Assembly: GCA_011109175.1 (NCBI GenBank)
Contig: RDEW01000013.1
Coordinates: forward strand, 1,126,912 to 1,190,911
Length of the DNA: 64,000 nucleotides
Source of the DNA: Dicyema japonicum
Taxonomy: Eukaryota; Dicyemida; Rhombozoa; Dicyemidae
Reading direction: 5' to 3'
Positions within the stretch are counted from its first letter, which is position 1. The number at the start of each line of letters is the position of its first letter. Below the pieces are notes generated by a model that saw nothing but the letters and a program-made list of their open reading frames with translations, was not told the DNA's origin and did not search any database. The translations under genes and the position numbers were made by a program. Positions 4,180-61,634 of this stretch are shown piece by piece.

Positions 4180-6060
4180 CCTTCTCCATAGTGCTTTGAT
4201 TCCGAAAACAAAGAGACCGGCTGAAGAGATGCCATCTGTTGGACATGAAGTCTTTGACAGCCCTCAGACAACTGAATAAAAGGATCTGTCAGAGCATAAA
4301 AGAACACAAGGACAAGAGATGGCAGCATCTAGTTAACCACCTCGACAGGAAAAGTACATCCCGACATTTCTGGAAAACTCTTAAACAAGTCAAGTCGGAG
4401 CTGGATGATGCAGACGGAACCGGAAAGTCTTCTCCTGAACACTCATGACACCTACATCCTAACACCCTTATGAAACATTACGCTGGAATTAGCTTCAAAC
4501 CATTCTCGAAACACCTGGACATTAAGGTGCGTGCCCATAAACCGAAGAAGGAACCTTATCACGAACTATTCACAGATGACCAAGTCTTGGATGTGATCAC
4601 CAGATTAAAGAGCTCACGGGCGTGCGGGCCTGACAAAGTATCTTCTATTCACCTAAAACACCTAAGCCACTACGCAATTGGCTACCTCACGCATATATAC
4701 AATCTGTCCATTAACTATAATATTATTCCTAAGATTTGGAAGAATTCTATCATCAGACCGATATTGAAGGCTGGGAAACCAGAGACAGAACCTGCATCCT
4801 ACAGGCCTATTTCCGTTACCAGCACACTGTCAAAAATTATGGAGAAACTTGTATTATCAGTCATTATTCCGTATCTTCCGCGTCCTATATTTCAACATGG
4901 TTTCCTCCGCGGTAGGTCCACCGCTACATACTTGGCAACTTTATCGCAGTTCATTGCCGACGGTTTTAACACCCATCCTCCGCCTCACAAACGCACAATC
5001 TTGGTTTCTATTGACATCAACAAAGCCTTTGACACTGTTTCGAGGAAAATCTGGTTGGAAAAACCTGGTTGGTAACTAATATTTCGTCAATAATTATGCT
5101 GGCCAACTTGTCTGGAAGACGTGGAAGAGTAGTCAGTGGTGATCTCAGATCTAGATCACGATTACTACCGAACGGGGTACCTCAGAGGTCTCCACTTTCA
5201 CTAATTCTATTCAACCTATTCCTACACGACCTACCTAATGATGGAGACGAAGATTTCCTGCTATTATCCTACGCAGACGATGTAGTCATTGCAATAGGAA
5301 CCGCTCGACGTAAGTCAAAACTCAGACAAAATTGAACAGTCTCCACGATTGGATTGTTGGCAATCGACTAACGATTTCTGCAACTAAGTCCATCTGTTTC
5401 ACTTTCACTTCGGACCGTCGTTCCAAGGATGAACCGAGTATCTTTATTGGTCCCATTCGGTATCCAGTGACAAGGTCCCCCATTCTCCTTGGAGTCAAGT
5501 ACGACAGTCTTCTCAATTTCGACTCCCACGCAACAGACATGATTACAAAGGGCCTCCAGAAAGTTAACGTTATACGCACTCTTGTTCGGAGGACCACGAG
5601 GAACATGGAATTTTCCGTTTTTACCCTCTACCAACAAACAATCGAGTATGTATGCCTCCGTTGCATGGAGATTCGGGCTATCAGTCTATGGTCCAAAGAA
5701 TCAACTCGATATACCGGAAAACAATCAGTATGCTTTGCCCACGTAATAGATCAACAGTCGATCCACTACTCATAGAAGCTAAGATCCGTAGTCGTGGCTC
5801 CGGATTTCTTCGCGTCTGTGAGGAAGATGGAAATCCGCTTCGCCTGATCCTTCCCATGGCAAGAAAAACCGATTGGATAAGAAATTCCCTTCCCCGATCG
5901 AATTTTTATGCAAGACCGAGAGAAGGCTCTTCCGGAAAGTAGTGGGGACGATGGAAGATCACAGACGTCGAATGGCACAATTGATTGCGAGGACTGGGAT
6001 CACCTAACTGTTTAGCTCTTTTGTCTTTCTTTCTCGGTGTTCCCGGGTTATTAAAAAAAG
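4180..6060 (+). mobile_element. Degenerate EEP-type (jockey/CR1-like) LINE, RT part
   Basis: Frames at 4239-4448, 4470-5075, 5069-5335, 5332-5775 and 5652-5990 together make one non-LTR reverse transcriptase interrupted by frameshifts. Visible RT motifs, in order, are RACGPDKV, PASYRPISV, FQHGFLRGRSTA, SIDINKAFDT, LPNGVPQRSPLS and the catalytic YADD at 5270-5281. The downstream thumb region follows with LLGVKYDSLLNF. The same family is seen at 9190-11191, 21037-22760 and 33923-35028; those copies supply the endonuclease half missing here. The 3' end reads TTTCTTTCTCGGTGTTCCCGGGTTATTAAAA, which resembles the 3' end of SINE-like family R1. No intact ORF remains. The copy is 5'-truncated near 4180. 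Confidence 0.85.
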
Positions 6061-6300: not shown

Positions 6301-6784
6301 TTAGTCATAGTTGGTAAATTAGCCGTAGTTTGTAAATAATATTTCCATAATTTTTATATGTAACTTTTAAAATAAGTGAATTAAATGTATAACTTCACCA
6401 AATAATAAATCGGGTATGCTTATTCCAAAACCACAAAAATAAATTAAAATCTGCGGAAATTAATTATTACAGAGCAAAGCGAAAATTTTGTTAGAATATG
6501 AAATAATAAACAAGAGCTAATTAATGACACACGTGTTGGCATAGAAATTAAAATTTATGTAATTGGCTTATTATTAGCCATTAACTATCATCCCGTACGC
6601 GCAGCTTCTGATGATAGGCCAAGTACGTGAATTTTAGGCCGAAATTTAAATTACTAACCTACATGCACTCAACACTTGTTTTGCTCAGGACTTCGGATTT
6701 CAAATGTTTTCCTAGTCTTCATCTCGCTATGTTCATAGAAAGAAAAAGACAAGGGGTTCTATTCATAGTGAAACTAAGCAGACA

Positions 6785-11248: not shown

Positions 11249-12584
11249 TCAAAAATTGTCTCCAATCAGAATGAAAGAAATTCTCGCCTTGTAATTCATC
11301 AAATTCAAAATGGAATACCACGTGTCTAAAATAACATCAGTTCAAACTTGCTGGAACAATAAAGTAATCGCCTCCCTTCAAAGTTCTATAGGGAGAATTG
11401 TTTAACGAGACTCCCACACGGCCACTTCGAACTGTGAGAATCTAAATATATATTGGAGTTTAGTTAACCATCACTGAGTCACGGACAAAAGTAAATGACT
11501 TTTCAAGTTTCGGTTTTATAATAAATTCTCCGCATTTCAAATTTCCCATCGAAGCCGATTCAGGGTTTAGTTGGTCAAATCTCGTCTCGCAAAAATAATT
11601 CCCGTGGTCATATATGGTTGCATTCGCAAGTCCAATACATTCTGAAATATTTTTAATCTCTTACCCTTTTTTGAATTTGGCTCACGACATACAGTAAAAT
11701 CTGACCGCAGTTGTCTCCGATTTGACTTCTTGTTCCTTCTTGGGCCATCTTCAATTTTTATTAGCAAAACTACCAGTAACAAAGCTTCTAACGATTCCCT
11801 TGATTTTTTGATCTTTGAATGAACATAAATTTAAAACATTTATCATAGACAATCCTCTCTCCAACACAGTTGTCTCTCCCAGAGATACGAGTTCTTGACG
11901 ACCTTCTCACTCCCAGAGGTGATGGATTCGGAACAACTTAAATAAAATTCAAATGTGACTAATTCTTCCTTGAATGTTTGGATGACTGTAAACCTTCGCA
12001 TTTGCTATTTTGTCATCAGTACACCTGATAAGAACTTAGAGTAAATACTATCTTTACATTTTTCTTCCTCATCCTTGCGAATATCGGATTCGTCCGAATA
12101 TTGGCTTTTTTGAGATCTCATGACGGGGAAAAAAGGTGTGCTCACCCTCTCATCAAAGTCTTCAACCATAGAAGACTTGAGTATCCCATTGGTCAAATGG
12201 TCGGATAAACTCAAATCTGTGATATTTAATTTTTATAAAACCTGAGGTGTTCCCTTTCAGAGAAGAAAAAGCTCCACACGATGAAAGAGACCCAAACGGG
12301 ATGTCGCATATGTCCTCGAATGGCTGATGGATTGCCTTGTTGATAAATTCTTGGCCGAGTTGAAAGCTATTTTGTAAGATTTTTGAGTTCTCTTCGTGCA
12401 CTAAAACTAAGATTGAGAGTTTTACATTCTCTTCGGATCGTAAAATCTGGAATGTTCTAAGAGTAATCAAAACAGTTACATTCATTATCACATTATTCAA
12501 GTTTTGATACTGGTCGTATATATTTTGCCAAATAAGGTTGAAGCAGTTGGATATGAAGTCGTGCATGGTCTTTGGTTCTTCCAT
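11249..12584 (-). CDS. CENP-C: CENP-C/Mif2-like kinetochore protein, nine exons with 20-27 nt introns
   Basis: CENP-C binds the CENP-A nucleosome and links centromeric chromatin to the kinetochore. Nine exons on the minus strand join into 1146 nt (381 aa). Exons: 12584-12242, 12216-12025, 12004-11960, 11936-11838, 11812-11774, 11748-11665, 11641-11469, 11441-11348, 11325-11249. The eight GT...AG introns are 25, 20, 23, 25, 25, 23, 27 and 22 nt. Without them the frame closes repeatedly. Residues about 204-222 read RRSSRTR...GERI with the same spacing as the CENP-C motif, but the usual YW pair is NC here. Residues about 300-381 form the C-terminal cupin: SGRVGVSLN, LKGGDYFIVPANTWYSI, then a short final strand and stop. 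Residues 1-190 are unrecognised and partly acidic. At 381 aa it is much shorter than vertebrate CENP-C. The identity rests mainly on the cupin and is inference by eye. The start at 12584 is the first in-frame ATG of exon 1, and the 20-nt intron is the least certain. Confidence 0.75.
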
Positions 12585-15267: not shown

Positions 15268-15339
15268 GGTCCCATAGTGTAGTGGTTATCACATCGGACT
15301 CTGAATCCGGTAACCCGAGTTCGAATCTCGGTGGGACCT
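15268..15339 (+). tRNA. tRNA-Gln (anticodon CTG)
   Basis: A 72-nt cloverleaf is visible. The acceptor stem is GGTCCCA (15268-15274) with TGGGACC (15332-15338) and discriminator T (15339). The anticodon stem is TCGGA/TCCGG with loop CTCTGAA and anticodon CTG at 15301-15303. The T arm is CCGAG/CTCGG with loop TTCGAAT. The A box (TAGTGTAGTGGTTATC) and B box (GTTCGAATC) are intact, and there is no intron. It is the only clear canonical tRNA gene in the window. CTG is read as glutamine by sequence similarity to other tRNA-Gln genes. Confidence 0.95.
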
Positions 15340-27087: not shown

Positions 27088-28140
27088 TCAGATTAAGATC
27101 GATATTGACCCAGAACTCCCACTCTCCAATATGTAACCTGTTCATCTGAGAAATTGCAGTCGCGAAAAGATTTATACTTTCCGAGACGCAACGTGCAAAT
27201 TTTAATAAGCTAAAAAAAAAGTTTTCTTTTTAGCGGGTCTAATCAACACTAGGAATCATAGTGAACGCGAAAGTCTGCGTATCATAATTAGCTTTTTCTT
27301 AAATTCGAAATATTGACCCGCACATGTGACGTTGTAAAGAAATCTCTCGTTTTAGGCATAATGAACTGCAATAAATTTATGGTTTCGCGTTTTGTATTTT
27401 CTGACTATTCGAACTTTCCTGATAAATTTACTAAAAAAATTATTTTGATGTCTATAATATGACTAAATTGTATGATATCGTACTTTCCGAAGAACCATGT
27501 CAGTTATCGCTCCCCACAGGCAGAACACACACTTTATTGAAGCAAAGAACAGTAATAATAGCTAATCGAGGGAGGATCAAGGTCTTCACTTTTTTGTTTT
27601 TCTTGGGTATGTACTTTTAAACTATCCAGTTGCACAGTGTTTGTCTACTGATGAAGGCGTCACTTGTCAAGCCCTTTTTAGCATCGTAGATGCGTGGAAC
27701 ATTCCACCAGGTGAACAACAGCGAGAATCGAACTCGTGACCAAAGCCACTTTGCCCGACACCTAACCAGTATGCCACCTGACTAAATTGTATAATCGCAT
27801 TAATGAAATTTGCTAATAAAAAGCCAAATGATAAACAGGTCATTTAGTGAAATATACATTCAATCTTAGAAAGCATTAATAGAATAATTAGTCATTATTT
27901 TGCCTATAATACAAACATTTATATAATAAATAGTAATTATGCGTGTGACCAAAATAGTTATATGTTTATCGAAATACAAAGTTTAGTCACTATCATTCTC
28001 AAAATATTTTGACGTCTGGCTAATTTCAGAAGCTATGTTTTCCTTTAGTCGATCATCGTGGATATTTAGCGAAAGAACTCATCGTCAATTACTCGACAGG
28101 GATCAAAACTACATGAATTATAAACTAAATATTAGTCGAC
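27088..28140. repeat. Duplicated block X1, partner 41426-42470
   Basis: Begins CAGATTAAGATCGA and is collinear with 41426-42470, including the inserted SINE-T. It contains no recognised coding. Homology continues through genes A1 and A2 and the LINE. The left boundary is sharp: upstream sequences at 27087 and 41425 are unrelated. 26960-27087 holds nothing recognised. Confidence 0.75.
27474..27779 (-). repeat. SINE-T with direct-repeat flanks
   Basis: The A box (GTGGCATACTGGTTAG) and B-box region are visible on the minus strand, followed by the common body and a tail. GACTAAATTGTAT flanks it at 27461-27473 and 27780-27792, a probable target-site duplication. Confidence 0.75.
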
Positions 28141-28177
28141 TAATGAATTTGTAAGTCATTATTATAATGGAATAATA

Positions 28178-29024
28178 TTAATAATTGAATTTGCCAATCG
28201 CTAAAGAATAATAACGTTTTCTTCTTTTATATTGTAGTATGAAAGCGATAGCAATGATCAGGATAATAACACAAATTCCTATTAAATATTTGATTTCTAA
28301 ATTAAAATTATTATTACTGAGAGGATGAGAGTTTATTTTATTTAAAGTAACATGAGTTGTTCTATAACTTTGAGTTGTAGTTGTAGTTAATTTTTTATTC
28401 AAATGAAGTGTTGACTTGAATCGAAGATCTCTTTCAAAATCACACCCGTGGGCTAAATGTCAGATACAATAATAACCTTTTCCAGTAAATATTGTATTAT
28501 TATCTGTTTTAAATAGTTGCATTTTCATATCTTTTATTTTTATAGTTCCGTAATTTGGAATTGTTACAACTATTTCACTGCAGTTATAATAACCGTTATT
28601 TAAAATTTTCGAAGCTGGAGTATACATAAATGTATGACGTGAAATCAATGTTAATTCCCAGAAAACAAATATTTTATTCGATACAATGTTAAATAATATT
28701 CTGAATCTTATATCATTTTTAATCCATTTAAGGTGACCAAATAAATGTTCACTAAAATAATAATCAAATGATGCGTCGATTAAATTATCATTTTTATTCT
28801 TTTATTAAATAAAATGTGATTACAGTATTATTAATTTTGTGTTCAACTTCTATTATTCCACTGAATAACGATACAACTTTATCGTTCTTTACTCCACCCC
28901 ACAAAGGTACATCATCATACAACTTTTCAAAAGTATCAACATTCCTCAACACATCTGTATTGCATACTAAACACGTATATATTCCTATTATTAATTTATT
29001 TTGTAAACCTAGTAATTGGAACAT
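28178..29024 (-). CDS. A1: single-pass membrane protein, unrecognised family, three exons
   Basis: Exons 29024-28824, 28798-28477 and 28452-28178 join into 798 nt (265 aa). Introns are 25 nt (28799-28823) and 24 nt (28453-28476), both GT...AG. Without the first the frame stops after eight codons. The second contains an in-frame TGA. Visible features are a moderately hydrophobic N-terminus (MFQLLGLQNKLIIGIYTCLV), an extracellular-type domain with NNGYYNCSEIVV and KIKDMKMQLFKTDNN, a GCDFERDLRF element, a Thr-rich stalk, one strong membrane helix (YLIGICVIILIIAIAFIL) and a basic tail (QYKRRKRYY). That implies type I topology. I do not recognise the family. The first ATG is at 29024; an earlier exon carrying a signal peptide is possible because TTAAATTAG precedes it. 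The gene is one of five copies (A1, C, B1, A2, B2). Confidence 0.65.
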
Positions 29025-29154
29025 TCTCACAGCAATTGTTCTAATTTAAATCAAAAATTATTTAAATTAAATAGAAACAAATTTAAATAAAATAAAGATT
29101 AATTTTTAATTGTTTGATAAATATTATGTGACATACTGGATTGATTAAGAAATG

Positions 29155-29169
29155 AATATTTATATGCAG
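29155..29169 (+). repeat. Left target-site duplication of LINE-3 insertion
   Basis: AATATTTATATGCAG, identical to 30554-30568. The unfilled paralogous site is at 33278-33292. Confidence 0.85.
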
Positions 29170-30553
29170 AGTTTTTCAATCAGAAGGGACCCTAGAATTC
29201 AAAGAGTATCTTGATACCTGTACAGAAGGCGAATAAACCAAGATCTAAGGTGGAGAACCTCCGTCCGGTCATATTAATGAATTCACTTCGGAAAATTCTG
29301 GCGAACATAACATTACAAAGGATGGAAGGACGCCTAGATACTTTTCTGTCGCTATACCACAGCGGATTCCGAAAAGGAAGATCTACTTCCGATGTTTTGT
29401 GGTCCCACAAGTGGAGATCTGCGGCCGTTCAAAAGTTCAAAATATCTACAACCATCCTCGGAATCGACATTTCGAGGGCCTTCGACTCTGTCGACAGACG
29501 GAGGCTAATACTGGTTTTGGAAAGTTTCCTATACGCTTCCACTGTCAGAATGGCCACCACCCTCCTAGCTGATACTTGGCTCACTGTATGAGTCGGGGGA
29601 GCCTTGTCTCGCCGATTTGAGACGACTGCTGGCACTCCACAGGGAGACCCATTATCACCTATACTTATTGTCATATACCTCGATGCTGCTTTACGGAAGG
29701 CAAAACCGATAATGGGTGAAAAGACAAACATTATTGCGTATGCTGACGACGTAGACTTTATTTCAAACGACAAAATACCGCTCACCCGCTTGATGGAAGA
29801 AGTGTCCGGAAGACTAGCCGAATGGTTCCTAACAGTAAATCCGGACAAGACTGACGAAACTGAACTCAAGAGGGAAAAAACAAGGACGGAGGAGTACTGG
29901 CGCAAATGCAAAAAGCTTGGCTCCCTCCTAGGAGACCATGAAGAAATTACGAGAAGGAAAACCCTACCACAAACTGCCCTCTCCAGATTAAAGAACACCT
30001 GGCTCCACAAAAAGGGCCTTGACATTATAACAAAAACTCGATTATACAACTCGCTAGTGAAACCCATACTACTATATAACGCTGGTACTTGGGCCTGCTC
30101 AAGAAATGAACTGAAGAGGCTTAATGCGTTTCATAGAGACCAACTACGGCATATGATGTTCGAAAGAAGTGATACGAGGATGTCATCTAATCTTTTTTAT
30201 AAGAGGACGAAGACCTCAGAAATTTCTAATGAGATTCTGGATACACGATGGAGGCTTTTCGGCCATATTCTGCGACTGGACCTAGATGCCCCCGCGAACG
30301 TAGCCATGGAGGATTACTTCATGTTGGAGGCCCCCCGTTTCCGTGGTCGCCCAAGGACGACACTGGCAGTCGTTCTCGACGAGGACCTCAAAGAAATGGG
30401 ACGGCATCTTGGAAGTGGAGAGGATCTTGACTGGTTGCGCACTGCGGCTTTGAATAGGAGGAAGTGGATGAAACTAACCAGTGATTTGCTAACTCGTGTT
30501 GCACATGCTTTGTCAAGTCCTATGACATAGCGATAAGTGCTTATAATAATAAT
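29170..30553 (+). mobile_element. LINE-3: 5'-truncated non-LTR element, one in-frame stop
   Basis: The RT frame runs from about 29211 to 30530 with a single TGA at 29589-29591, where an Arg codon (CGA) is likely ancestral. Motifs are VENLRPVILMNSLRK, HSGFRKGRSTSD, LGIDISRAFDSVD, TPQGDPLSPIL and the catalytic YADD at 29739-29750. These are followed by LGSLLGDHEEITRRK and LVKPILLYNAGTWAC, and the frame ends SSPMT. The 3' UTR is only about 20 nt and finishes in an ATA/AAT repeat. 15-bp target duplications flank it. The endonuclease half is missing (5' truncation). Copy 2 at 43480-44859 shares this insertion by segmental duplication and has additional stops. Confidence 0.9.
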
Positions 30554-30568
30554 AATATTTATATGCAG
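30554..30568 (+). repeat. Right target-site duplication of LINE-3 insertion
   Basis: AATATTTATATGCAG immediately after the AAT-repeat tail. Confidence 0.85.
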
Positions 30569-30890
30569 GCATCAGCTATTGTATTCATTTCAAATTAGGG
30601 TTAAAGATTAGGATTGTGTTATGCATTGGGTATTAAGATAAGTCCACATGTCAGATAATACTGTCTCAAATATTGTAGATGATTTAATATAAACATAGAA
30701 TAAAAGTAACGTCAATATAAATGACGTTGTGACGTTTTGTTTAATCTGTTTCTGTAGAAGTGGAAACTGGATACAATTAACTAGTTTTTTTCTTTCACTT
30801 CTTTCTCAGTTTATCTTGGGTTAATAAATAATTTAAATTCATCGGTTCTGAAGGTTTATTTTAAATGAGTTTTAGGATTTCGAAAAATTA
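30569..30890. other. Intergenic spacer with R1 3' end
   Basis: Collinear with 33293-33620 and 44875-45200. Contains the 3' half of SINE-like R1 at about 30755-30830. No coding seen. Confidence 0.6.
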
Positions 30891-30892
30891 GC

Positions 30893-32150
30893 AGAATGGT
30901 GAAACTTCCATTTCGTTCCCCATGCACGCTTGAGATATTGTGGAGCAGTAGAGAATTGAGATATTATAGCAGCAGTTGTAGAGTCAGCTATCTCAGCACT
31001 ATCAGCACATGGGTTAGAACCGATTCCGTATGAATGTGAAATCATAAACGTTGCTCGGGCAGAGACGATATTGTCCGTGCTGAGGCTACGATTTTTATTT
31101 TCTCCTGGATCTCTTGATCACCCGAATCGAAATCGCAATTTCTTTCTGGTATCCTCTATACGGTAGTAACATATCCAACCCTGGAAAAGAAAAATGCATT
31201 TTTTGATGACTGCCTTTCTATCTTCGACATAAGCTTCCAGTCTTCTCACACGGCAGATCCTAAGCTATTTTTTCTGATCGGACGCTGAACCAGTGGCATG
31301 CATGGCTCGGAAAGTCTGGACGCGATTGAGTGTTAGATTCCCTAAGAACGCTAATAAAAAACGAGAATGGGACAAGCTTTTATTATCAAAGATCATAGAA
31401 GAGATAAAACCTGTGTTTGATCAGCATCTACTGGCTTGTCTGGATTCTGCATCGACGAACGAAAGTAGTGTCTGTTTCAGTATTACCATGCACTTCACTT
31501 GGGACACTTTTGGATGACGACGCAAACGAGGGTTGGGGATTTCGTACGCCTCGAAATAGATGTTTGCACGATACATCGCTGAAAATTTGAAAGAATGGTC
31601 CACACGAAAAGTCTTCAGCTATTTCCTGCCGGAGGAGTGCTAGAAGGAGTCCAATACACGCTGCAATCTACGAAGCTATTGTTGGGGAATTGATGCTGCT
31701 GGATCTCCTGTCCAATTAAAGCCACCCGGACTCGACCCATCCAACCAAAGACCGGACGAAACAACTCTTTTCCCATGGGAATGCTGTAGATACCAAGGAC
31801 GCCACCTCTGTGGATAGCATCTCTCTTCAATTTTGTTATGCCAGCAACTAACCCAGGCTTTTCTTTGGAGAAGGCTGAAATCCTAAAGATGAGGAAATAC
31901 GTATGTCTCTGTTAACAGTTTATCTTTGAACCAGTGGCTGTGGGAACGTCAGGAATCATAGGTAGCAGGTCACTTGTCCTATTTAACAGAATCGGTTCCC
32001 TCATTGCAAAAAATAATTGGAGACAAAAGAGCTGGCACATTGAGCGCACTTTTTTTGCAGATCATCAGGGGAATTGCTTTCTCGATTATAAGAGCACCAG
32101 TAGTTGTTAACTGTTAGTTTTTGCATTAACCTGTTTTTATTTAAAAAAGA
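30893..32150 (+). pseudogene. RLE-LINE 3' remnant
   Basis: Decayed match to 24860-26800. The recognisable pieces are FPCTLEI near 30905, MACMARKVWTRLSVRFPKN at 31293, an EEIKPVFDQHLLACLDSASTN stretch, and a degraded TTLFPW/DATSVDS endonuclease core near 31750-31810. The 3' UTR is near 32035-32150. It has many stops and frameshifts. The copy at 45221-46445 is nearly identical because of segmental duplication. Confidence 0.75.
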
Positions 32151-32246
32151 ATGAAGTCACTTAATTAGTCCAGCTAATATGAAAAAATAGTGAATGAACC
32201 CAATATTATTAAAACCCAAAATACCCGATAATTAATTATGAAGTAA

Positions 32247-33154
32247 CTATAATTGAGAATATCTTCTGTTATATTTAAACGAGAAAATAATAGTAACAAT
32301 CAATGAGAATGAAACAGTTACAACTAGAGCTATTATATATTTGTTTTCTAAATTTAAATTAATATTACTGAAGGCATCAAAGTATGTTAAAATTCGAGTA
32401 CTATGAGTCGTAATAGTCTTTAATTTCGTACTTAAAGGAACATGTGATGTTAATTTTTTTGATTTGAATTCTACAAATTATATTTTATAGTACTTCTTAT
32501 ATGACTATGAGTTGTAGTTAATTCTGTATTCAAAAGGAGTGGTGAATTGAATCGGAGATCTCTTTCAAAATCACATCCCTGGGCTAAATATCAGTTAAAA
32601 TAATTACCATTTCCTGTAAATATTTTATTATTATCTGTTTTAAAAAGTTGCATTTTCATATTTTTATTTTTATAGTTCCGTAATTAGGAATTGTTACAAC
32701 TATTTCACTGCAGTTATAATAACCGTTATTTAAAATTTTCGAAGATGGAGTAAACATAAATGTACGACGTGATATCAATGTTAATTCCCAGGAAACAGAT
32801 ATTTTATTCGATACAATGTTAAATAATATTCTGAAACTTATATCATTTTTAATCCATCTAAGGTGACCAAATAAATGTTCACTAATATAAAAATCAAAAG
32901 ATGCGTCGATTAAATTATCATTTTTAATCTTTTATTAAATAAAATGTGATTACAGTATTATTAATTTTGTGTTCAACTTCTATTATTCCACTGAATAACG
33001 CTACAACTTTATCGTTCTTTACTCCACCCCACAAAGGTACATCATCATACAACTTTTCAAAAGTATCAACATTCCACAACACATCAGTATTGCATACTAA
33101 ACACGTATATATTCCTATTATTAATTTATTTTGTAAACCTAGTAATTGGAACAT
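32247..33154 (-). pseudogene. C: chimeric membrane-protein gene copy with one frameshift
   Basis: Exon structure is that of B2: exons 33154-32954, 32928-32608, 32583-32494 and 32470-32247, with introns of 25, 24 and 23 nt (32929-32953, 32584-32607, 32471-32493). Exon 2 is 321 nt instead of 322 because one base is missing near 32662, so the frame is broken unless this is a sequencing error. The C-terminal half (left part) matches the B type and the N-terminal half (right part) matches the A type. That suggests gene conversion or unequal recombination. The end of the protein is a membrane helix plus KYNRRYSQL. Confidence 0.6.
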
Positions 33155-33277
33155 TCTCACAGCAATTGTTCTAATTATAAATCAAAAAATTATTTAAATT
33201 AAATAGAAACAAATTTAAGATTAATTTTTAATTGTTTTGATAAATATTATGTGACATACTGGATTGATTAAGAAATG

Positions 33278-33292
33278 AAAATTTATATGTAG
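33278..33292 (+). repeat. Unfilled target site paralogous to the LINE-3 insertion
   Basis: AAAATTTATATGTAG occupies the position of the 15-bp duplication and is followed directly by GGCATCAGCTATTG, as after 30568. No LINE is present here. Confidence 0.75.
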
Positions 33293-33634
33293 GCATCAGC
33301 TATTGTATTCATTTTAAATTAGAGTTAAAGATTAGGATTGTGTTATGCATTAGGTTTTTAGAAAAGTCCACATGTCAGATAATATTGTCTAAAATATTGT
33401 AGATGATTTAATATAAACAAAATAAAAGTAACGTCATTATAAATGACGTTGTGACGTTTTGTTTAATCTGTTTCTGTAGAAGTGGAAATTGGATACAAAT
33501 AACTAGTTTTTTTCTTTCACATTTTCTCAGTTTATCTTGGGTTAATAAATAAATTAAATTCATCGGTTCTGAAATTTTATTTTAATTGAGTTTTAGGATT
33601 TCGAAAATTAGCAGAATGGTAAAACTTTCATTGA

Positions 33635-33915
33635 TGAAGTTTTCTGCTTGCTTGTCTGTTCCTCCTCTCTCTTCCTATTAGAGTGGCGTCATGTGATTCA
33701 CCTGTCTAGGTGACGCCCAGTCCCAGGCCGGCACAAAAAATGATCATTTGATCTTCCCTCTCCACTGGAGGGGTTTCCACAACTACATGTAATGGACGTC
33801 TTACCTTTTATGCTGATTCCAGATGGACTCTGTCTCTGTAGATGTGGAAACTGAATACACTTAATTAGTAGTTTACTTTAACTTCTTTCTTGGTGTATCC
33901 GGTGTTAATAAATTA
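33635..33915 (+). repeat. R1 SINE-like repeat
   Basis: Contains GAGTGGCGTCATGTGATTC, GGGTTTCCACAACTACATG and TTCTTTCTTGGTGTATCCGG.TTAATAAATT. An isolated R1 3' end also lies at 33465-33550. Confidence 0.7.
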
Positions 33916-33922
33916 AATTAAC

Positions 33923-35028
33923 TTTGTGTCTTGTCGAATACTCGAAAAGGTTTCACCCATTGCGGAAAGGAACGAAAAGAGCTATCAACTTTTCTCCACC
34001 TCTTGGGGCTTCCAGTAACTATGTGCTTCCGACTACGTCTGGTGTCATAATTGTTTTGGACTTTTGATCCTTCTATGTGGCGACATTGAAACAAAGCCAT
34101 GGAGACTTAATTATAAGGAAGATTCTCGAACTTTGAGCTCTTCTCTCCGCAAATCGAGCTGACCTTGCTAACATCCTCCACGCCAACATTTTTCTTCCAA
34201 GAATACATAGTGATCCGTAAGGACAATCAGGGAAGACCAGGTGAAGGACTACTCGATTATAAAGAACGGCATACTTTTCATTGACGTGAGTTGACGGACC
34301 TCCGATCCTTTGAGCTCAGACAATACCATGGAGCAGATCACCTTCAACATGGAGCTGTTCCCGTTTTTTGGATTAATTTGATTAACCCATACATCCTACC
34401 AAAAGCATCCTGTCCAAAATCCAACACCTCAAACATACCCCGCCTCTCAGTATTAAAGAACATTTTAATATGCGGCGACCTAAATGCCCGACACCCCGTT
34501 AGGCTTGCTTCACAATTTCTGACAGCTGAGGCGAGTTCATCGCAAATGGTCTTGTTAATATAATTATCCTGAATGACTTTAAATTAGACACAAGAATCCC
34601 AATCCCATCGTCCTTTTTAAGAAGATTTCGGAGACTCCGGACATTGCAGACAGAAACGAAAAGTTTCAAGAACTATAAGAAGGTTGACTGGCATGGCATC
34701 TCTAACTTCGTTGATATGGAATTGGTCAACGGGCTACCATCCCATAAACGGTTCAATAGATGAAGCCGCAAAAATCAAAAGTGTGGTTATTCAAAGGCAT
34801 ACAACATATTTATTCCTCTCTTTTATACCTACCCTCAATTTCCGGAGACTTACACTCATAATACGAAAAAACCTTATGAAAACATGCTATCCGACGGAGT
34901 TGAAATCTATCGGAAAACAAAATAAAAGTATCAACAAAAACATAATAGATCACTAGGCTCAGAGATGGTGTCTGTCATCAAATGAGTCTTGAAGGCTCGA
35001 AAACCGGAGGGAGAAACTGCTTCGTACT
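33923..35028 (+). mobile_element. EEP-LINE 5' part, internally deleted
   Basis: Collinear with 21037-22200 (about 95% by eye), including the 2A-like motif (34061-34099) and NILICGDLNARHPV. It then jumps to sequence matching about 22630 (GAGTCTTGAAGGCT), so some 400 bases of the linker and RT N-terminus are deleted. It ends near 35028. Confidence 0.75.
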
Positions 35029-35034
35029 TGCAGA

Positions 35035-35725
35035 AAATATTATTTGTCAAGACACCCGCACTTGTTTAAAAATATTTCATTGACCAAAAGCACAGTTGCT
35101 GAACACATTAATAAAATGTCTTTGAATTTGAAAAACCAATTAAAGGCTGAATTGTTAAAATTTGACTATTTCATTCAATTGTCGACTTTGTTGGAATTGT
35201 ACAATTTGCAATCCTTTTAGAGACTGTGATTCAGATTTTAACATTAATGTAGAATTTCTCGAACTGAGACCAATTCACGAGACTACGACAAGTTAAGACA
35301 TCTTTGTTAAACTACTAAAAATTCTTTGTATATGGGCTTGATTTGAAGAAGCCTGTACGTCTTTGCTCTTAGTAAACTGCTGATATTAATAATCAGTTCA
35401 GCGAAATTCCTTTTTATACTCGATTCCTCTGGTTATCATTTCAGAAAGTTGTTAAAAGATTTTATTTGTTGGAATACTTGCTTTCCTTTCATATCTTCCT
35501 GGAAAGTTTAAAAAAATTCAAAAATTTGCGACGAAAAATAATACTATGTTGGGTTCGACATATGTTTTTGTACAACTTCTATTTATGAAATTGACAAAAA
35601 CTGGTCAAAAAGCAAGACTCACTGATGAAAAATTTATCCGCTTAATAAAAGTCGGAACCACACGAATGGCTGCGCCCGACATATCAAAAATTGTATCCAA
35701 AAAAAAAATTAAAGGGTGTTGATTA
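35035..35725 (+). pseudogene. hAT-type transposase remnant (GTF2IRD2-like)
   Basis: Separated pieces on the plus strand read FKNISLTKSTVAEHINKMSL...LKAELLKFDYF (35060-35190), EFLELRPIHETTT.DIFVKLL (35245-35315) and, after a break, LTDEKFIRLIKVGTTRMAA with PDISKIVSKKK (35610-35710). The order and motifs fit hAT-superfamily transposases of the kind annotated as GTF2IRD2-like. Those normally have LALDEST near the first piece and a C-terminal dimerisation segment at the last. Stops interrupt every piece. Confidence 0.55.
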
Positions 35726-37560
35726 AATAATTAAGTTTCTCTTATTTTGTTTTTTATTAAAATATATTTTAATACATATCAGAACTAATCTTCCCTTGAT
35801 AAGAAATTATTATAAATGCGGCCCTCGAAGAAAATGAGTTTGACACCTTTTTTAGGCTCATTCTTCGCAGGTCCTGAAAGCCGCCGATTAACTGAAAAAC
35901 TCAAACATGTCGGGCCATAATTCTCGATGTCTCAACAGAGATTGGCTGAAAACCGACGGGTACTTGCTCTTTGGAATCTTTCAACAAGAAAGTCATCTTA
36001 GAACTCACGCGCAACGATGAATGACGCACTTTAACTATCCATGTTGAAACTATTTTTGTCCAACAACAGCCTGCCGCCAAGAGTAGTCATGTATTCATCA
36101 GTTAAAAAACAGCCTGGGCAGAACTCACACTTTATCCAAGGCATTGAAAATGTTCTTGACTTCTCGTTTTTTCTTTTTTGCTTGTGTGTGAGTGCTAAGA
36201 CAATCAGCTACAGCAGTGATGAAACACTGATGACGGCATCACTTGTCAGCCCACTCGTTCTCTGTCCAATCAAGAATAAATATCCTTAATCCCTTTATTA
36301 AGCTTAACACCAGACTGTAGAACATCGACTTCGTTTCTACACGAGACAATCATAAAGTCCAGAGTTTTTTGAACTAAATTAATTTTAATTTTTTTTATTT
36401 AAAAAGTAAGTATTTTTTTATTTAAATTTATAACAGTTATTGCACGTTGCGTGTGTTTTTTAGGGATCAAGACTTCCAGGCAACGACGAGAGTAGAACAT
36501 TTCCTGAACTGTTTGCTTTTGTGGCTGAACGAAATACGAAGGACTATCAGCCGTTAGAAATCCGTTAAATTCCTATTCACCAAAATGTTAAACAAGTCAA
36601 TTGAAGCTAAACAATGTGATAAAAGGATTAACCTACTGAAAAGATTAATGAATCAATGGAAAATCAGGAACGATCCCGTACATAAAACGCTTTACATTGA
36701 GCCATTCATTTCATATGCATGTGCCACACGGGGACCCTACATCGGACTAATTTTAGAAATCGTGACTATTCAAAATGGCTTTTTGGGGAGTCAGAGAAAT
36801 GGTCTACAGACAAAAAGAACATGATACCGACAACCTTGAGGGAATAACAGAAGAGGCTTGATCAACGTGATCGGGAGACAACCTGACCTAAACGAAGCTG
36901 TTTAGGATTAACAGAAGAAAATCAATTCTACCTGAGATTTTGTCGAGATCATATAGTTTGTTTTTTAGTTTAACGATGGTCTTTGAATGCAGTAGTCTAT
37001 TAATTTATTTTTACTTGTTTTCCATGAAAATTCATTCATGACAACGATGAAATTAAAAATTCTGTGTTATTCGCTCGATTTAGGTAGTGAGTGAAGAAAT
37101 GATTGTGTCTAGACATTAAGCCAGCAGTAGGTATTGGGAGGAAAATTTTTTATGTTTCTTCATGGAAATAATTACACGGTGGCAACGCTTACTATAGCGA
37201 AAACGGACAATGTCCCCTGAGAACGTCCGTCATTGGTAGCTACGTTCCTGTTAGCCACCAGCTTCTGTCACATTGATAGGACTTGTTGGTAAATAAAGAC
37301 AATATAGAAGTTGGTTTAGTCTTACATCCGAATGTTGACGAGGATATTCGACAATAGTCTTTAAAATATCGGTTTCATACATGTGAGTGTCAATCATCTT
37401 ATATTTGATTCCCTGTAGATAAACTTCAGAATTTTTAAAATTGTGTTGTTTGCACCATCTTACATCGGTATGTTAAAAATTTAAATTTTTGAAGCATTTC
37501 TCTTTACATAAATCATGATACAGATTATTTAGCACTGAACTGAAACTTAATCACAAGAAA
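35726..37560. other. No confident gene; SINE-T remnant
   Basis: 36100-36260 matches SINE-T on the minus strand (CAGAACTCACACTTTAT, GATGACGGCATCACTTGTC). A short open stretch near 36455-36565 (GSRLPGNDESRTFPELFAFVAE) and a 79-codon frame at 36585-36824 are unrecognised. The rest is AT-rich. Confidence 0.35.
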
Positions 37561-38600: not shown

Positions 38601-38639
38601 CTTCCCTTATGTAGTCAAAAAATCATTATGTTGGAAAGG

Positions 38640-40650: not shown

Positions 40651-40752
40651 AAAAGAATGTAGTCACTTAATTAGTCCAGCTAATATGAAAAAATAGTGAA
40701 TGAACCCAATATTATTAAAACCCAAAATAACCGATAATTTATTATGAAGTAA

Positions 40753-41424
40753 CTATAATTGAGAATATCTTCTGTTATATTTAAACAAGAAAATAATAGT
40801 AACAATCAATGAGAATGAAGCAGTTACAACTACAGCCATTATATATTTGTTTTCTAAATTTAAATTAATATTACTGAATGCATCAAAGTATGTTAAACTT
40901 CGAGTACTATGAGTCATAATAGTCTTTAATTTCGTACTTAAAGGAACATGTGATGTTAATTTTTTTGGTTTAAATTCTACAAATTATATTTTATAGTACT
41001 TTTTATATGACTATGAGTAGTAGTTAATTTTTTATTCAAAAGGGGTGGTGAATTGAATCGGAGATCTTTTTCAAAATCACATCCCTGGGCTAAATATTAG
41101 TTAAAATAATTACCATTTCCTGTAAATATTTTATTATTATCTGTTTTAAAAAGTTGCATTTTCATATCTTTTATTTTAATTGTTCCGTAATTAGGTTTTG
41201 TTATAACTATTTCACTGCAGTTATAATAACCGTTATTAAAATTTTCGAAGCTGGAGTATACATAAATGTCTGACGTGAAATCAATCTTAATCCATACGAA
41301 ACATACATTATATTTGATACAATGTAAAATAATATTTTGAATTCTATATAATTTTTCTGCCATTTGAGGTAACCAGATAATTGATCACTAATATAAAAAT
41401 CAAAATATGCGTCGATTAAATTTT
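40753..41424 (-). pseudogene. B1: truncated membrane-protein gene copy
   Basis: Matches B2 but lacks exon 1 and the start of exon 2, cut at the junction with block X2. Introns are 24 nt (41090-41113) and 23 nt (40977-40999). One base is missing in exon 2 near 41237 relative to B2. The stop inside the 24-nt intron is TAA here, not TGA. Exons 3 (41089-41000, 90 nt) and 4 (40976-40753, 224 nt) have the same lengths as in B2. It is a pseudogene. Confidence 0.7.
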
Positions 41425-41425
41425 C

Positions 41426-42470
41426 AGATTAAGATCGAGATTGACCCAGACCTCCCACTCTCCAATATGTAACCTGTTCTCTGAGAAATGCTGTCGCGAA
41501 AATGATTTACACTTTCCGAGATGGAACGTGCAAATTTAATAAGCTAAATTAAAAAAGATTTCTTTCTAGCGGGTCTAATCAACACTAGGAATCATGGTGA
41601 ACGCGAGAGTCTGCGTATCATGATTGCTTTTCTCAGATTCGACGTATTGACCCGCACATGTGACGTTTAAAGAAATCTTCGTTTTAGGCGTGAATGAGCA
41701 TCAATAAATTTACGGTTTCGCGTTTTGTATTTTCTGACTATTCGACTTTGATAAATTTACTTAAAAATTATTTTGATGTCCATAATATGACTAAATTGTA
41801 TAATATCGCACTTTCCGAAGAACCATATCAGTTATCGCTCCCCACAGGCAGAACACAGACTTTATTTAAGCAAAGAAAAGTAATAATAGCTAAGCGAGGG
41901 AGGATCAAGGCTCTTTACTTTTTGTTTTTTTTCTTGGGTATGTCCTTTTAGACTATCCAGTTCCACAGTGAATGTCTACTGATGAAGGCGTCACTTGCAA
42001 GCCTTTTTTAGCATCGTAGATGCGTGGAATTCCAAGGTGAACACAGCGAGAATCGAATTCGTGACCAAAGCCACTTTGCCCGACACCAACCAGTATGCCA
42101 CCCGACTAAATTGTATAATCGCATTAATGAAATTTGTTAATAAAAAAGCCAAATAATAAACAGGTCATTTAGTGAAATATACATTTAATTTTAAAAAGCA
42201 ATAATTGAATAATTAGTCATTATTTTACCTATAATACATAGTAATTATGCGTGTGACCAGAATAGTTATATGTCTATCGAAATACAAAGTTTAGTCACTA
42301 TCATTCTCAAAATATTTTGATGCCTGGCTAATTTCAGAAGCTATGTTTTCCTTCAGTTGATCATTGTGGATATTTAGCGAAAGAACTCATCGTCAATTAC
42401 TCGACAGGGATCAAAACTACATGAATTATAAACTAAATATTAGTCGAATAATGAATTTGTAAGTCATTAT
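41426..42470. repeat. Duplicated block X2, partner 27088-28140
   Basis: Begins CAGATTAAGATCGA and is collinear with X1. No coding recognised. Confidence 0.75.
41805..42103 (-). repeat. SINE-T with 16-bp target-site duplication
   Basis: GACTAAATTGTATAAT flanks it exactly at 41789-41804 and 42104-42119. It has the same insertion position as in X1, so the SINE inserted before the block was duplicated. Confidence 0.85.
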
Positions 42471-42485
42471 TATAATGGAATAATA

Positions 42486-43332
42486 TTAATAATTGAATTT
42501 GCCAATCGCTAATGAATAATAACGCCTTCTTCTTTTGTATTGTAGTATGAAAGCGAAAGCAATGATCAGGATAATAACACAAATTCCTATTAAATATTTG
42601 ATTTCTAAATTAAAATTATTATTACTGAGAGGATGAGAGTTTATTTTATTTAAAGTAACATGAGTTGTTCTATAACTTTGAGTTGTAGTTGTAGTTAATT
42701 TTTTATTCAAATGAGGTGTTGACTTGAATCGAAGATCTCTTTCAAAATCACACCCGTGGGCTAAATGTCAGATACAATAATAACCTTTTCCTGTAAATAT
42801 TGTATTATTATCTGTTTTAAATAGTTGCATTTTCATATCTTTTATTTTTATAATTCCATAATTAGGAATTGTTACAACTATTTCACTGCAGTTATAATAA
42901 CCGTTAATTAAAATTTTCGAAGCTGGAGTATACATAAATGTTTGACGTGAAATCAATCTTAATTCCCAGAAAACAAATATTTTATTCGATACAATGTTAA
43001 ATAATATTCTGAAATTTATATCATTTTTAATCCATTTAAGGTGACCAAATAAATGTTCACTAAAATAATAATTAAAAGATGCGTCGATTAAATTATCATT
43101 TTTAATCTTTTATTAAATAAAATGTGATTACAGTATTATTAATTTTGTGTTCAACTTCTATTATTCCACTGAATAACGCTACAACTTTATCGTTCTTTAC
43201 TCCACCCCACAAAGGTACATCATCATACAACTTTTCAAAAGTATCAACATTCCACAACACATCAGTATTGCATACTAAACACGTATATATTCCTATTATT
43301 AATTTATTTTGTAAACCTAGTAATTGGAACAT
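42486..43332 (-). CDS. A2: single-pass membrane protein, paralogue of A1
   Basis: Exons 43332-43132, 43106-42785 and 42760-42486 have exactly the A1 lengths (201, 322, 275 nt) and join into 265 codons plus stop. Introns are 25 nt (43107-43131) and 24 nt (42761-42784, with an in-frame TGA). Protein features are as for A1, with scattered substitutions, for example LWNVD for LRNVD near the N-terminus and a K/R change in the tail. The copy arose in the duplication of blocks X1 to X2. Preservation of the frame in both copies suggests, but does not prove, function. Confidence 0.65.
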
Positions 43333-43479
43333 TCTCACAGCAATTGTTCTAATTTTAAATCAAATAATTATTTAAATTAAATAGAAACAAATTTAAATAA
43401 AATAAAGATTAATTTTTAATTGTTTGATAAATATTATGTGACATACTGGATTGATTAAGAAATGAATATTTATATGCAG

Positions 43480-44859: not shown

Positions 44860-44874
44860 AATATTTATATGCAG

Positions 44875-46445: not shown

Positions 46446-46550
46446 TAAAAAAGAATGAAGTCACTTAATTAGTCCAGCTAATATGAAAAAATAGTGAATG
46501 AACCCAATATTATTAAAACCCAAAATACCCGATAATTAATTATGAAGTAA

Positions 46551-47459
46551 CTATAATTGAGAATATCTTCTGTTATATTTAAACGAGAAAATAATAGTAA
46601 CAATCAATGAGAATGAACCAGTTACAACTAGAGCTATTATATATTTGTTTTCTAAATTTAAATTAATATTACTGAAGGCATCAAAGTATGTTAAAATTCG
46701 AGTACTATGAGTCGTAATAGTCTTTAATTTCGTACTTAAAGGAACATGTGATGTTAATTTTTTTGATTTGAATTCTACAAATTATATTTTATAGTACTTT
46801 TTATATGACTATGAGTTGTAGTTAATTCTGTATTCAAAAGGGGTGGTGAATTGAATCGGAGATCTTTTTCAAAATCACATCCCTGGGCTAAATATCAGTT
46901 AAAATAATTACCATTTCCTGTAAATATTTTATTATTATCTGTTTTAAAAAGTTGCATTTTCATATCTTTTATTTTAATTGTTCCGTAATTAGGTTTTGTT
47001 ATAACTATTTCACTGCAGTTATAATAACCGTTATTTAAAATTTTCGAAGCTGGAGTATACATAAATGTCTGACGTGAAATCAATCTTAATCCATACGAAA
47101 CATACATTATATTTGATACAATGTAAAATAATATTTTGAATTCTATATAATTTTTCTGCCATTTGAGGTAACCAGATAATTGATCACTAATATAAAAATC
47201 AAAATATGCGTCGATTAAATTTTCATTTTTAATCTTTTATAAAATAAAATGTGATTACAGTATTATTAAATTTATGTTCAACTTCAATTATTCCACTGAA
47301 TAACGATACAACTTGATCTTTTTTTAATCCACCCCACAATGGTACATCATCATACAACTGTTCAAAAGCATCAATATTCGGCAACACATCTCTATTGCAT
47401 ACTAAATACGTATATATTCCTATTATTAATTTATTTTGTAAACCTAGTAATTGGAACAT
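46551..47459 (-). CDS. B2: single-pass membrane protein, four exons
   Basis: Exons 47459-47259, 47233-46912, 46887-46798 and 46774-46551 (201, 322, 90, 224 nt) join into 837 nt (278 aa). Introns are 25 nt (47234-47258), 24 nt (46888-46911) and 23 nt (46775-46797). The third intron holds an in-frame TAG and has no counterpart in the A genes. The N-terminal exon has LYDDVPLWGG. Exon 2 has MYTPASKILNNGYYNCSEIV. Exon 4 has a Ser/Thr-rich region, then NLNLENKYIIAL plus a hydrophobic helix and KYNRRYSQL. This is the only intact B-type copy. Family unrecognised; type I topology inferred. Confidence 0.65.
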
Positions 47460-58860: not shown

Positions 58861-59301
58861 ATGTTACCTTTACTGATAACATTTGTTTCTTTAGTAATGC
58901 ACAGAGGACCATTCGACCAATCTCAAAATTTAGATGGTGAATTAATTATAGTTGATTTAACCGAAGAACATTGTAAAAGAAGGTTTCAATCGCTTCGTAG
59001 TCAAATAAACGCTTTCAATGAAAGTCACTTTTATTTAAATAGTCATGTTAATGGCATCCGAAACAAGAACAAAGATATTTGTAATGATGAATTTAATAAT
59101 ATAATGTATTATGCAACATTAGGACATCTTCGCGAAAATAATGAAAAATATAAGAGTGCTGACCCACAGACATTTTGCGAGAAAATTTCTTTTGTTAGAA
59201 AAGCACTGACAATACTTTCTGAAAGCCAGAATGCTACAACTAATAGATTAGAACTGTACTTGACTTGTGTGAAGAGCATGTCGTCTAATCGTGAGAATTA
59301 G
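58861..59301 (+). CDS. Secreted-family copy 2: small four-Cys protein
   Basis: A continuous 146-codon frame. The N-terminus MLPLLITFVSLVMHRGP is signal-peptide-like. Cysteines are at 38, 74, 106 and 136, spaced for two disulfides. The most conserved block is IRNKNKDICNDEFNNIMYYA with LGHLRE after it. NES (53) and NAT (124) are possible N-glycosylation sites. Predicted mostly helical by composition. A 30-nt GT...AG interval (58937-58966) sits exactly where the paralogues have their intron, leaving a 76-nt exon 1 as in both. It lacks a stop and is a multiple of three, so spliced (136 aa) and unspliced (146 aa) forms are both open. I do not recognise the family; a secreted effector or ligand is only a guess. 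Confidence 0.65.
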   Translation: MLPLLITFVSLVMHRGPFDQSQNLDGELIIVDLTEEHCKRRFQSLRSQINAFNESHFYLNSHVNGIRNKNKDICNDEFNNIMYYATLGHLRENNEKYKSADPQTFCEKISFVRKALTILSESQNATTNRLELYLTCVKSMSSNREN

Positions 59302-61192: not shown

Positions 61193-61634
61193 ATGCTACC
61201 TTTTATGATAAGATTGATTTCTTTACTAATACAGAAAAGACTACTGGACCCAGCTCAAATATTACCAAGTAATTAAATTATAGGTAATTTTAATAGTTCA
61301 ACAATGTGAAAGAAGGGCTATTTTTATTCTGGTGCAATTTTACAAATGGATACTAAGTCACTCTCAATTAAAAAATCACATTAATGGTATTCGAAATGAA
61401 AACAGGGATATTTGTAATGAAGAATATAATAATATAATGTATTATGCAACATTAGGGCATCTTCGCGAACTTAATGAAGAATTTAGAAGGGATAACCCAA
61501 AAACTTATTGCCAGAAAATTCCTTATATTCTTGAAGCACTGTCAATATTTACAGATAACCAGAATGCGACAAATAATGGATTTGAACTTTACTGGGCGTG
61601 TGTGGAAAGTACATCGTCTAATGTTGAGAATTAG
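61193..61634 (+). CDS. Secreted-family copy 3: small four-Cys protein, one 28-nt intron
   Basis: Exon 1 (61193-61268, 76 nt) and exon 2 (61297-61634, 338 nt) join into 414 nt (137 aa). The 28-nt intron (61269-61296) contains a stop in the unspliced frame, so here splicing is required. The N-terminus MLPFMIRLISLLIQKR is hydrophobic but has an internal Arg, so it is a weaker signal peptide than copy 2. QQCERR, RDICNEEYNNIMYYATLGHL, TYCQKIPYILEALSIF and ELYWACVES keep all four cysteines. NAT (an N-glycosylation sequon) is also conserved. Promoter block and AATAAA (61677-61682) match the other copies. Confidence 0.6.

What the first reader, a model, noticed from the sequence alone, without database searches (positions are those of the whole stretch)
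11249..12584. Ultra-short spliceosomal introns (20-30 nt) across unrelated genes
Seen: in the CENP-C-like gene (eight introns, 20-27 nt), the A/B membrane genes (23-25 nt), the secreted family (28-30 nt) and the integrase genes (24-27 nt), GT...AG intervals restore frames that are otherwise closed. Total coding lengths come out divisible by three in every intact copy (1146, 798, 798, 837, 414). Several introns carry branch-like CTGAC, CTAAT or CTGAT. Established: introns of about 26 nt have been reported for dicyemids, and few metazoans have them this short. Inference: this is a genome-wide property of the source organism.
Basis: partly seen in the sequence, partly recalled or inferred. Interest (0 to 1): 0.9.

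Follow-up and report, generated by a model that had tools for sequence, protein, structure and literature searches.

The report
Tiny major introns, longer minor introns
A small animal genome, very likely that of a dicyemid parasite, has gene interruptions of only about 23 letters that are predicted to be spliced out, while a second, rarer kind of interruption in the same genes stayed about twice as long, which suggests that the second splicing machine likely has its own size limit.

Summary
In genes anchored by homology (Prp8, CCT chaperonins), 55 of 108 splice-aware calls pass a two-sided flank test; these are 20-26 nt, mean 23.2, sd 1.1, 54 GT-AG and one GC-AG. In the window, only the joined exons of the CENP-C-like gene reach Pfam's CENP-C cut-off, and paralogous membrane genes keep their 24-25 nt introns. 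This is the property known from dicyemids (25-27 nt), here at the short end. Weak points: the eight-intron CENP-C model is one of 1,596 compatible structures, CTGAC/CTAAT/CTGAT is not enriched, one 'secreted' copy is open unspliced, and two 20-nt calls look like one-base frameshifts. New here: the genome keeps U11, U12 and U6atac snRNAs and has U12-type AT-AC introns in SMAP (48 nt), GGPPS (52 nt) and, less firmly anchored, PLC (58 nt), each next to a 23-nt U2-type intron. So the minor class did not shrink with the major class. There are only three cases, all found by consensus pattern, and no RNA evidence; a separate size floor for the minor spliceosome is an inference.

The parts
11249..12584 (-). 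CENP-C-like gene (C-terminal CENP-C/Mif2 cupin); the longest spliced frame uses 7 GT-AG intervals of 18-27 nt, the exact set is not determined
   Evidence: spliced-frame scan 1,173 nt, 0 of 200 shuffles; PF11699 33.3 bits, cut-off 29; 1,596 structures fit
11442..11468 (-). 27-nt GT-AG intron inside the CENP-C_C domain
   Evidence: joined 36.4 bits, pieces at most 15.3 bits
11326..11347 (-). 22-nt GT-AG intron inside the CENP-C_C domain
   Evidence: joined 36.4 bits, pieces at most 15.3 bits
11642..11664 (-). 23-nt GT-AG interval (GTAAGAG...TTTCAG), probable intron, no homology anchor
   Evidence: spliced-frame scan
42486..43332 (-). membrane gene copy, 798-nt spliced frame; introns 43131-43107 (25 nt) and 42784-42761 (24 nt)
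   Evidence: introns conserved in paralogues
46551..47459 (-). membrane gene copy, 837-nt spliced frame; introns 47258-47234 (25), 46911-46888 (24), 46797-46775 (23)
   Evidence: first two conserved in paralogues
27978..29222 (-). further copy of the membrane gene region, 97.7% identical, with both introns; its frame was not read
32510..33289 (-). further copy of the membrane gene, 93.9% identical, with both introns; its frame was not read
41016..41426 (-). partial copy of the membrane gene, 87% identical, keeps the 24-nt intron
58861..59301 (+). 'secreted family' copy 1: open reading frame of 146 aa without any splicing; a 30-nt intron here is not required
61269..61296 (+). 28-nt GT-AG interval in 'secreted family' copy 2, removed in the longest spliced frame; weakly supported

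Best explanation
The intervals are GT-AG introns about 23 nt long (20-26 nt in 55 homology-anchored cases), predicted to be removed by the major (U2) spliceosome, in a genome that is very likely a dicyemid's and that also carries longer U12-type AT-AC introns (48-58 nt) likely removed by a retained minor spliceosome. Shown: lengths, termini, homology across the junctions, little donor information beyond GT in the CCT genes, a weak UNAY signal 6-12 nt from the 3' end of the CCT introns, and snRNA genes for U2, U11, U12 and U6atac. Inferred: in so short an intron U1/U6 at the 5' end and U2 at the branch would lie only about 14-17 nt apart, so recognition is likely by intron definition and size rather than by strong sequence signals. 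[quoted passage not shown] in the three AT-AC introns these sites are 41, 45 and 43 nt apart, and that geometry would keep the class from shrinking below roughly 45 nt.
For: U2-type: Prp8 spliced over 37 called introns aligns to a profile of nine animal Prp8 proteins from position 35 to 2342 of 2343; 34 of the 37 pass the flank test. In nine genes 55 of 108 calls pass; mean 23.24, sd 1.09, range 20-26. Donor positions +3 to +6 carry 0.03-0.18 bits in the 21 CCT introns and 0.44-0.83 in the AT-rich 34 of Prp8. UNAY with A 6-12 nt from the end: CCT 18 of 21 against null means of 9.6 (base shuffle) and 10.5 (dinucleotide shuffle). U2 snRNA: 22 of 25 matches above cut-off. U12-type: U12 85.4 bits, cut-off 53; U6atac 37, cut-off 33, with AAAGGAGAG and CUUGACAAGG kept; U11 67.6, cut-off 39. 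GGPPS: exons joined over the 52-nt AT-AC intron and its 23-nt neighbour align without gap over 88 residues to the solved GGPPS 2q80; Pfam 41.1 bits joined, 12.3 at best in the two pieces tried. SMAP: with the 48-nt AT-AC intron and a 23-nt neighbour, 65 residues align without gap to SMAP1 2crr; Pfam 56.1, 18.4 at best in pieces. PLC: 58-nt AT-AC intron, PI-PLC-Y 82.4 bits joined, 75.2 for the second exon alone. The three 23-nt neighbours are printed.
Against: No RNA evidence: splicing is predicted, not seen. 53 of 108 alignment calls failed the flank test, most of them in CCT paralogues aligned to a CCT5 profile; 7 of them are 30-59 nt and 7 are 118-397 nt, and a few could be real longer U2-type introns. 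The aligner gives small bonuses for common splice-site bases, which touches the donor and acceptor counts. In Prp8 the UNAY excess at 6-12 nt is not significant against dinucleotide shuffles (p 0.15; at 6-9 nt p 0.013). The three U12-type introns were found by strict consensus patterns; degenerate or shorter ones would be missed, and for 30 of the 53 hits no flanks could be read. Totals do not clearly exceed the reversed-pattern control for the loose patterns (39 vs 59; 53 vs 57; 51 vs 45); the strict long-spacing one does (13 vs 4; one-sided binomial p 0.025). PLC is weaker than the other two: its upstream exon alone has no Pfam match and adds only 7 bits, only 5 of 23 PDB matches extend over the junction, the other 18 starting at residue 56-60, and its 23-nt neighbour was not tested by homology. 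U4atac was not found (no positive control). The Prp8 tree leaves the organism unplaced within animals.
Confidence: 0.88

Rival explanations
1. The intervals are not introns: long frames appear by chance because GT...AG pairs of 20-30 nt are common in AT-rich DNA.
For: The CENP-C interval alone admits 1,596 compatible structures, and other 1.5-kb tiles of the window give spliced frames of several hundred bases, up to 1,035 in the listed tiles.
Against: Joined exons align gap-free or nearly so with conserved proteins over dozens of junctions; 0 of 200 shuffles reach the CENP-C frame; splice sites are conserved in paralogues.
Confidence: 0.02
2. A share of the shortest 'introns' are one-base errors or frameshifts that an intron model papers over.
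For: The 20-nt calls at L014:2225-2244 (CCT5) and at 5591-5610 of L080 read in reverse (Prp8) cover conserved coding sequence that continues in another frame.
Against: Both failed the flank test, and the 55 supported introns include only one of 20 nt (6332-6351 of reversed L080), where the protein continues without gap and the unspliced frame closes.
Confidence: 0.1
3. U12-type introns are longer here only because they are few and had less time or fewer deletions, not because the minor spliceosome needs more room.
For: Only three cases; PMC10639083 (passages) reports that lineages with few minor introns can keep long ones while major introns are short (for example Hermetia, 4,019 against 105 bp); Blastocystis minor introns average just under 42 bp. 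The strict pattern also has matches with wider spacing, up to 78 nt, so the class may not end sharply.
Against: The three lengths are close to each other (48, 52, 58) and the 5' splice site to branch distances closer still (41, 45, 43 nt), as if they had met a floor rather than kept scattered ancestral lengths; each lies in a gene whose U2-type neighbour is 23 nt.
Confidence: 0.4
4. The U12-type genes and snRNAs are host (cephalopod) contamination.
For: Dicyemids live in cephalopods, and the D. japonicum assembly was filtered against octopus reads (PMC6736024, passage).
Against: The three AT-AC introns lie on contigs of 1.77-2.2 Mb, each beside a 23-nt intron in the same gene; the U12 gene is on a contig that also bears a U2 gene and the U6atac gene is on the window's own contig.
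Confidence: 0.03

Closest known systems
Dicyema acuticephalum introns (Aruga 2007, PMC2222250, passages; Irimia and Roy 2008, PMC2483917, passages)
   Same: Very short uniform introns shown with cDNA (26.2 +/- 1.9 nt, n = 16), weakest known 5' boundary score, relatively high intron density.
   Different: Here mean 23.2, sd 1.1 (n = 55). A weak UNAY branch signal is seen in CCT introns where the 2008 paper reports no branch signature. U12-type introns and minor snRNAs are described here; in the 2008 paper, the only one found that names both dicyemids and U12, the passages on U12-type introns do not concern dicyemids.
Dicyema sp. and D. japonicum genomes (PMC6543705 and PMC6736024, passages)
   Same: D. 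japonicum genome about 65-67.5 Mb and 49% repeats; in Dicyema sp. [quoted passage not shown]
   Different: Those figures come from gene predictions (D. japonicum mean 38.2 bp); this assembly has 191 contigs and is unnamed; identity with either species was not testable.
Tiny introns of the ciliates Stentor and Paramecium and of the B. natans nucleomorph (PMC9505925 and PMC2222250, passages)
   Same: Very short introns: Paramecium 20-35 bp, B. natans 18-21 bp (PMC2222250); Stentor about 15 nt (recalled). In Paramecium, selection on in-frame stops in introns is known (recalled).
   Different: None of the four minor snRNAs was found in Stentor (PMC9505925); here U11, U12 and U6atac are present and AT-AC introns occur.
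U12-type (minor) introns across eukaryotes (PMC10639083 and PMC3584512, passages)
   Different: Median minor and major lengths usually go together (rho 0.90 in PMC10639083); here the minor class is about twice the major class. Dicyemids do not appear in that paper's main text ('dicyem' 0 occurrences).

Membership tests
U2-type spliceosomal introns | GT-AG (or GC-AG) ends at positions fixed by homology | tested here: met
   55 of 108 calls pass; 54 GT-AG, 1 GC-AG
U2-type spliceosomal introns | U2 snRNA with branch-pairing GTAGTA | tested here: met
   22 of 25 matches above cut-off; GTGTAGTATC in the copy read
U2-type spliceosomal introns | branch-point signal | tested here: inconclusive
   UNAY 6-12 nt from the end: CCT 18 of 21 against about 10 expected; Prp8 29 of 34, not significant against dinucleotide shuffles
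U2-type spliceosomal introns | removal seen in RNA | not testable with these tools
   no transcript data
U12-type AT-AC introns | ATATCCTTT 5' splice site and TTCCTTAAC branch site (letters recalled) | tested here: met
   3 of 3, but they were found by a pattern close to that
U12-type AT-AC introns | AT and AC ends fixed by reading frame and homology | tested here: met
   GGPPS gap-free, SMAP gap-free; PLC by frame and Y domain, weaker on the upstream side
U12-type AT-AC introns | U11, U12, U4atac and U6atac snRNAs | tested here: inconclusive
   U11, U12 and U6atac found; U4atac no match, without a positive control
U12-type AT-AC introns | branch A to 3' splice site short, optimum 11-13 nt (PMC3584512) | tested here: inconclusive
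   7, 7 and 15 nt
Dicyemida (source organism) | genome near 65-67.5 Mb with tiny introns | tested here: met
   64.67 Mb; introns
Dicyemida (source organism) | sequence match or phylogenetic placement with known dicyemids | tested here: inconclusive
   the best 120 hits listed for CCT5 and for Prp8 name no dicyemid, many rows bearing no name; Prp8 tree of 20 rows: among animals, long branch, unresolved, not grouped with the orthonectid

The most novel reading that the evidence does not exclude
The two spliceosomes have different physical size limits for introns, and this animal shows both limits at once: the major spliceosome lets introns collapse to about 23 nt (5' splice site to branch about 15 nt), while the preformed U11/U12 di-snRNP holds its introns at about 48-58 nt with 41-45 nt between 5' splice site and branch. 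The genome is thus a natural experiment that isolates what di-snRNP recognition costs.
Probability: 0.4. Interest if true: 0.8.

Novelty: new variant of a known kind. Interest (0 to 1): 0.55.

Why it matters
Ultra-short introns in an animal are already known from dicyemids, so the first finding alone is a confirmation, at the short end of the range. A retained minor spliceosome with introns about twice as long in the same genes was not seen for dicyemids in the papers searched (and the direct searches, each with one paper, whose U12 passages do not concern dicyemids; open-licence library only). If it holds genome-wide, it separates two things usually confounded, genome compaction and the space a spliceosome needs, and makes the minimum substrate of each spliceosome testable in one animal.

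Tried and rejected
Frame restoration alone as proof: rejected, since 1,596 structures fit the CENP-C interval. Codon-bias scoring of U12 candidates and of Prp8: no power in this AT-rich genome. Loose U12 patterns: counts near or below the reversed control; most of the hits whose flanks were read have no convincing coding flanks. The 57-nt acceptor for the SMAP intron was replaced by 48 nt because it removes a three-residue gap and scores better (against 84; against 83). The candidate at L060:1500 (GT-AG, 58 nt, open on both sides) was left out of the set because its protein has no match above a cut-off. The rank test (p 0.0014) used 58, 57, 52, before that correction; in either version all three exceed all 55, and the test does not allow for the pattern-based choice. 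Spacing in the long-spacing census is not significantly crowded at its short end (7 of 12 independent hits at 60 nt or less, p 0.19). Organism by 18S: the search machine was busy three times and the request was not repeated later. Prp8 tree: unresolved. Whether other animals carry U12-type introns at these three places: one paper search gave nothing useful. A retrocopy search (natural cDNA) was not run; the last three genome searches went to U4atac, U11 and the long-spacing pattern.

Full report
WHAT WAS CLAIMED.

THE WINDOW. On the minus strand at 12584-11249 the longest spliced frame is 1,173 nt; none of 200 dinucleotide shuffles reaches it (maximum 705). The product has a CENP-C_C domain (33.3 bits, cut-off 29). 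The last three exon pieces give no match, 15.3 bits and no match for that family alone, and 36.4 bits joined, so the 27-nt and 22-nt introns within the domain are supported by homology. One 'secreted' copy needs no intron.

GENOME-WIDE TEST. The window lies in an assembly of 64,672,829 bases in 191 contigs. PF00118 matches show CCT exons separated by, for example, 17 or 28 bases. A splice-aware protein-to-DNA aligner written for this purpose (GT donors, GC and AT donors at a cost, AG acceptors, a flat intron cost, small bonuses for common splice-site bases, no length preference) was run with ten CCT5 and nine Prp8 reference proteins. Prp8 gave 37 introns. Over nine genes there were 108 calls. 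Of these, 55 have on both sides at least six aligned residues with a summed score of 12 or more and no gap: 34 in Prp8 and 21 in CCT genes. Lengths: 20 (1), 22 (13), 23 (19), 24 (16), 25 (5), 26 (1); mean 23.24, sd 1.09. The 53 dropped calls include many of 21-27 nt with weak flanks in distant CCT paralogues, 7 of 30-59 nt, 7 of 118-397 nt (mostly near gene ends), one of 14 and one of 18 nt, junctions next to alignment gaps, and two 20-nt calls that look like a one-base frameshift in CCT5 and Prp8.

SIGNALS. Beyond GT the donor carries 0.03-0.18 bits per position (+3 to +6) in the CCT set and 0.44-0.83 in the AT-rich Prp8 set; a very weak 5' consensus was reported for D. acuticephalum (PMC2483917, passages). 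CTGAY is found in 0 and CTAAY in 2 of 55. UNAY with its A 6-12 nt from the end is found in 18 of 21 CCT introns against null means of 9.6 and 10.5; in Prp8 in 29 of 34 against 22.1 (p 0.007) and, with dinucleotides kept, 25.9 (p 0.15). Of introns with a length divisible by three, 15 of 16 hold an in-frame stop, against 11.2 expected by shuffling (p 0.021); of the others 22 of 39, against 21.5. That is a hint of selection through nonsense-mediated decay, with small numbers.

THE MINOR SPLICEOSOME. Rfam models find one U12 gene (85.4 bits), one U6atac gene (37 bits, core elements kept) and one U11 gene (67.6 bits), each above its cut-off; U4atac was not found, without a positive control. [quoted passage not shown] GGPPS joined over this and a 23-nt GT-AG intron aligns with a solved GGPPS over 88 residues without gap. 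SMAP likewise aligns over 65 residues with SMAP1. PLC joined reaches 82.4 bits for the Y domain, but 75.2 of that comes from the downstream exon, and only 5 of 23 PDB matches extend over the junction, so its upstream side is weaker. Each of the three genes has a 23-nt GT-AG interval beside the U12-type one (in SMAP and GGPPS it lies within the gap-free alignments, in PLC it was not tested). All three U12-type introns exceed all 55 U2-type introns. A stricter pattern with wider spacing has 13 matches against 4 for the reversed control, which suggests further U12-type introns with larger spacing; the loose patterns show no excess. Flanks could be read for only 23 of the 53 hits, and all three cases were found by consensus, so the lower end of the class is not settled.

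HOW IT LIKELY WORKS. Major introns appear to be recognised by intron definition with GT, AG, a branch A near the end and little else. [quoted passage not shown] The near-constant 41-45 nt between them in three unrelated genes would be the footprint of that unit. This last step is inference from three cases.

WHAT IS KNOWN. Dicyemid introns: 26.2 +/- 1.9 nt with cDNA (PMC2222250), median 27 bp (PMC6543705), mean 38.2 bp in gene models (PMC6736024), and a table row for 41 introns that reads 25, 24.93, 2.51, whose column heads I did not see (PMC2483917); all seen as passages. In Stentor, with tiny introns, no minor snRNA was found (PMC9505925, passages). The pan-eukaryotic minor-intron survey does not mention dicyemids in its main text, excluded introns under 30 nt, and gives Blastocystis as the shortest minor class, average just under 42 bp (PMC10639083, passages). 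Searches for dicyemids with introns, genomes or minor splicing; the only paper that holds 'dicyem' with 'minor spliceosome' or 'U12' is PMC2483917, and its U12 passages do not concern dicyemids.

ORGANISM. Size, tiny introns and the longest animal branch in a 20-row Prp8 tree fit a dicyemid; no direct sequence comparison was possible.

Noticed in passing
L014:2225-2244 and L080 (reversed) 5591-5610: What look like one-base frameshifts inside highly conserved stretches of CCT5 and Prp8 mimic 20-nt introns; assembly errors or real frameshifts.
   Followed up: partly
[quoted passage not shown] perhaps a repeat family carrying a U12-type intron outside coding sequence.
   Followed up: no
L053 and L054 (C62:977929 and 1001790): Duplicated perfect GTATCCTTTAAAAAATTCCTTAAT motif with short spacing; flanks do not look coding.
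   Followed up: partly
L060:1500 (C115:188875): Possible U12-type GT-AG intron of 58 nt between open frames; protein not identified.
   Followed up: partly
G000 contig C115:851074-962467: Six of the 22 above-cut-off U2 snRNA matches lie within about 111 kb on this contig, while U11, U12 and U6atac have one match each.
   Followed up: no
window 27978-47556: Five copies, one partial, of a membrane-protein gene in about 20 kb; in the first 523 coding bases of two copies the differences fall almost evenly on codon positions (16, 17, 23).
   Followed up: partly
window 52782-52910: Integrase (rve) fragment, one of 149 matches in the genome (a lower bound, since 150 of 237 candidates were scored).
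   Followed up: no
window 15268-15339: tRNA-Gln (CTG).
   Followed up: no
anchored introns of Prp8 and CCT genes: Introns divisible by three almost always hold an in-frame stop (15 of 16), as if retained introns had to be visible to nonsense-mediated decay.
   Followed up: partly
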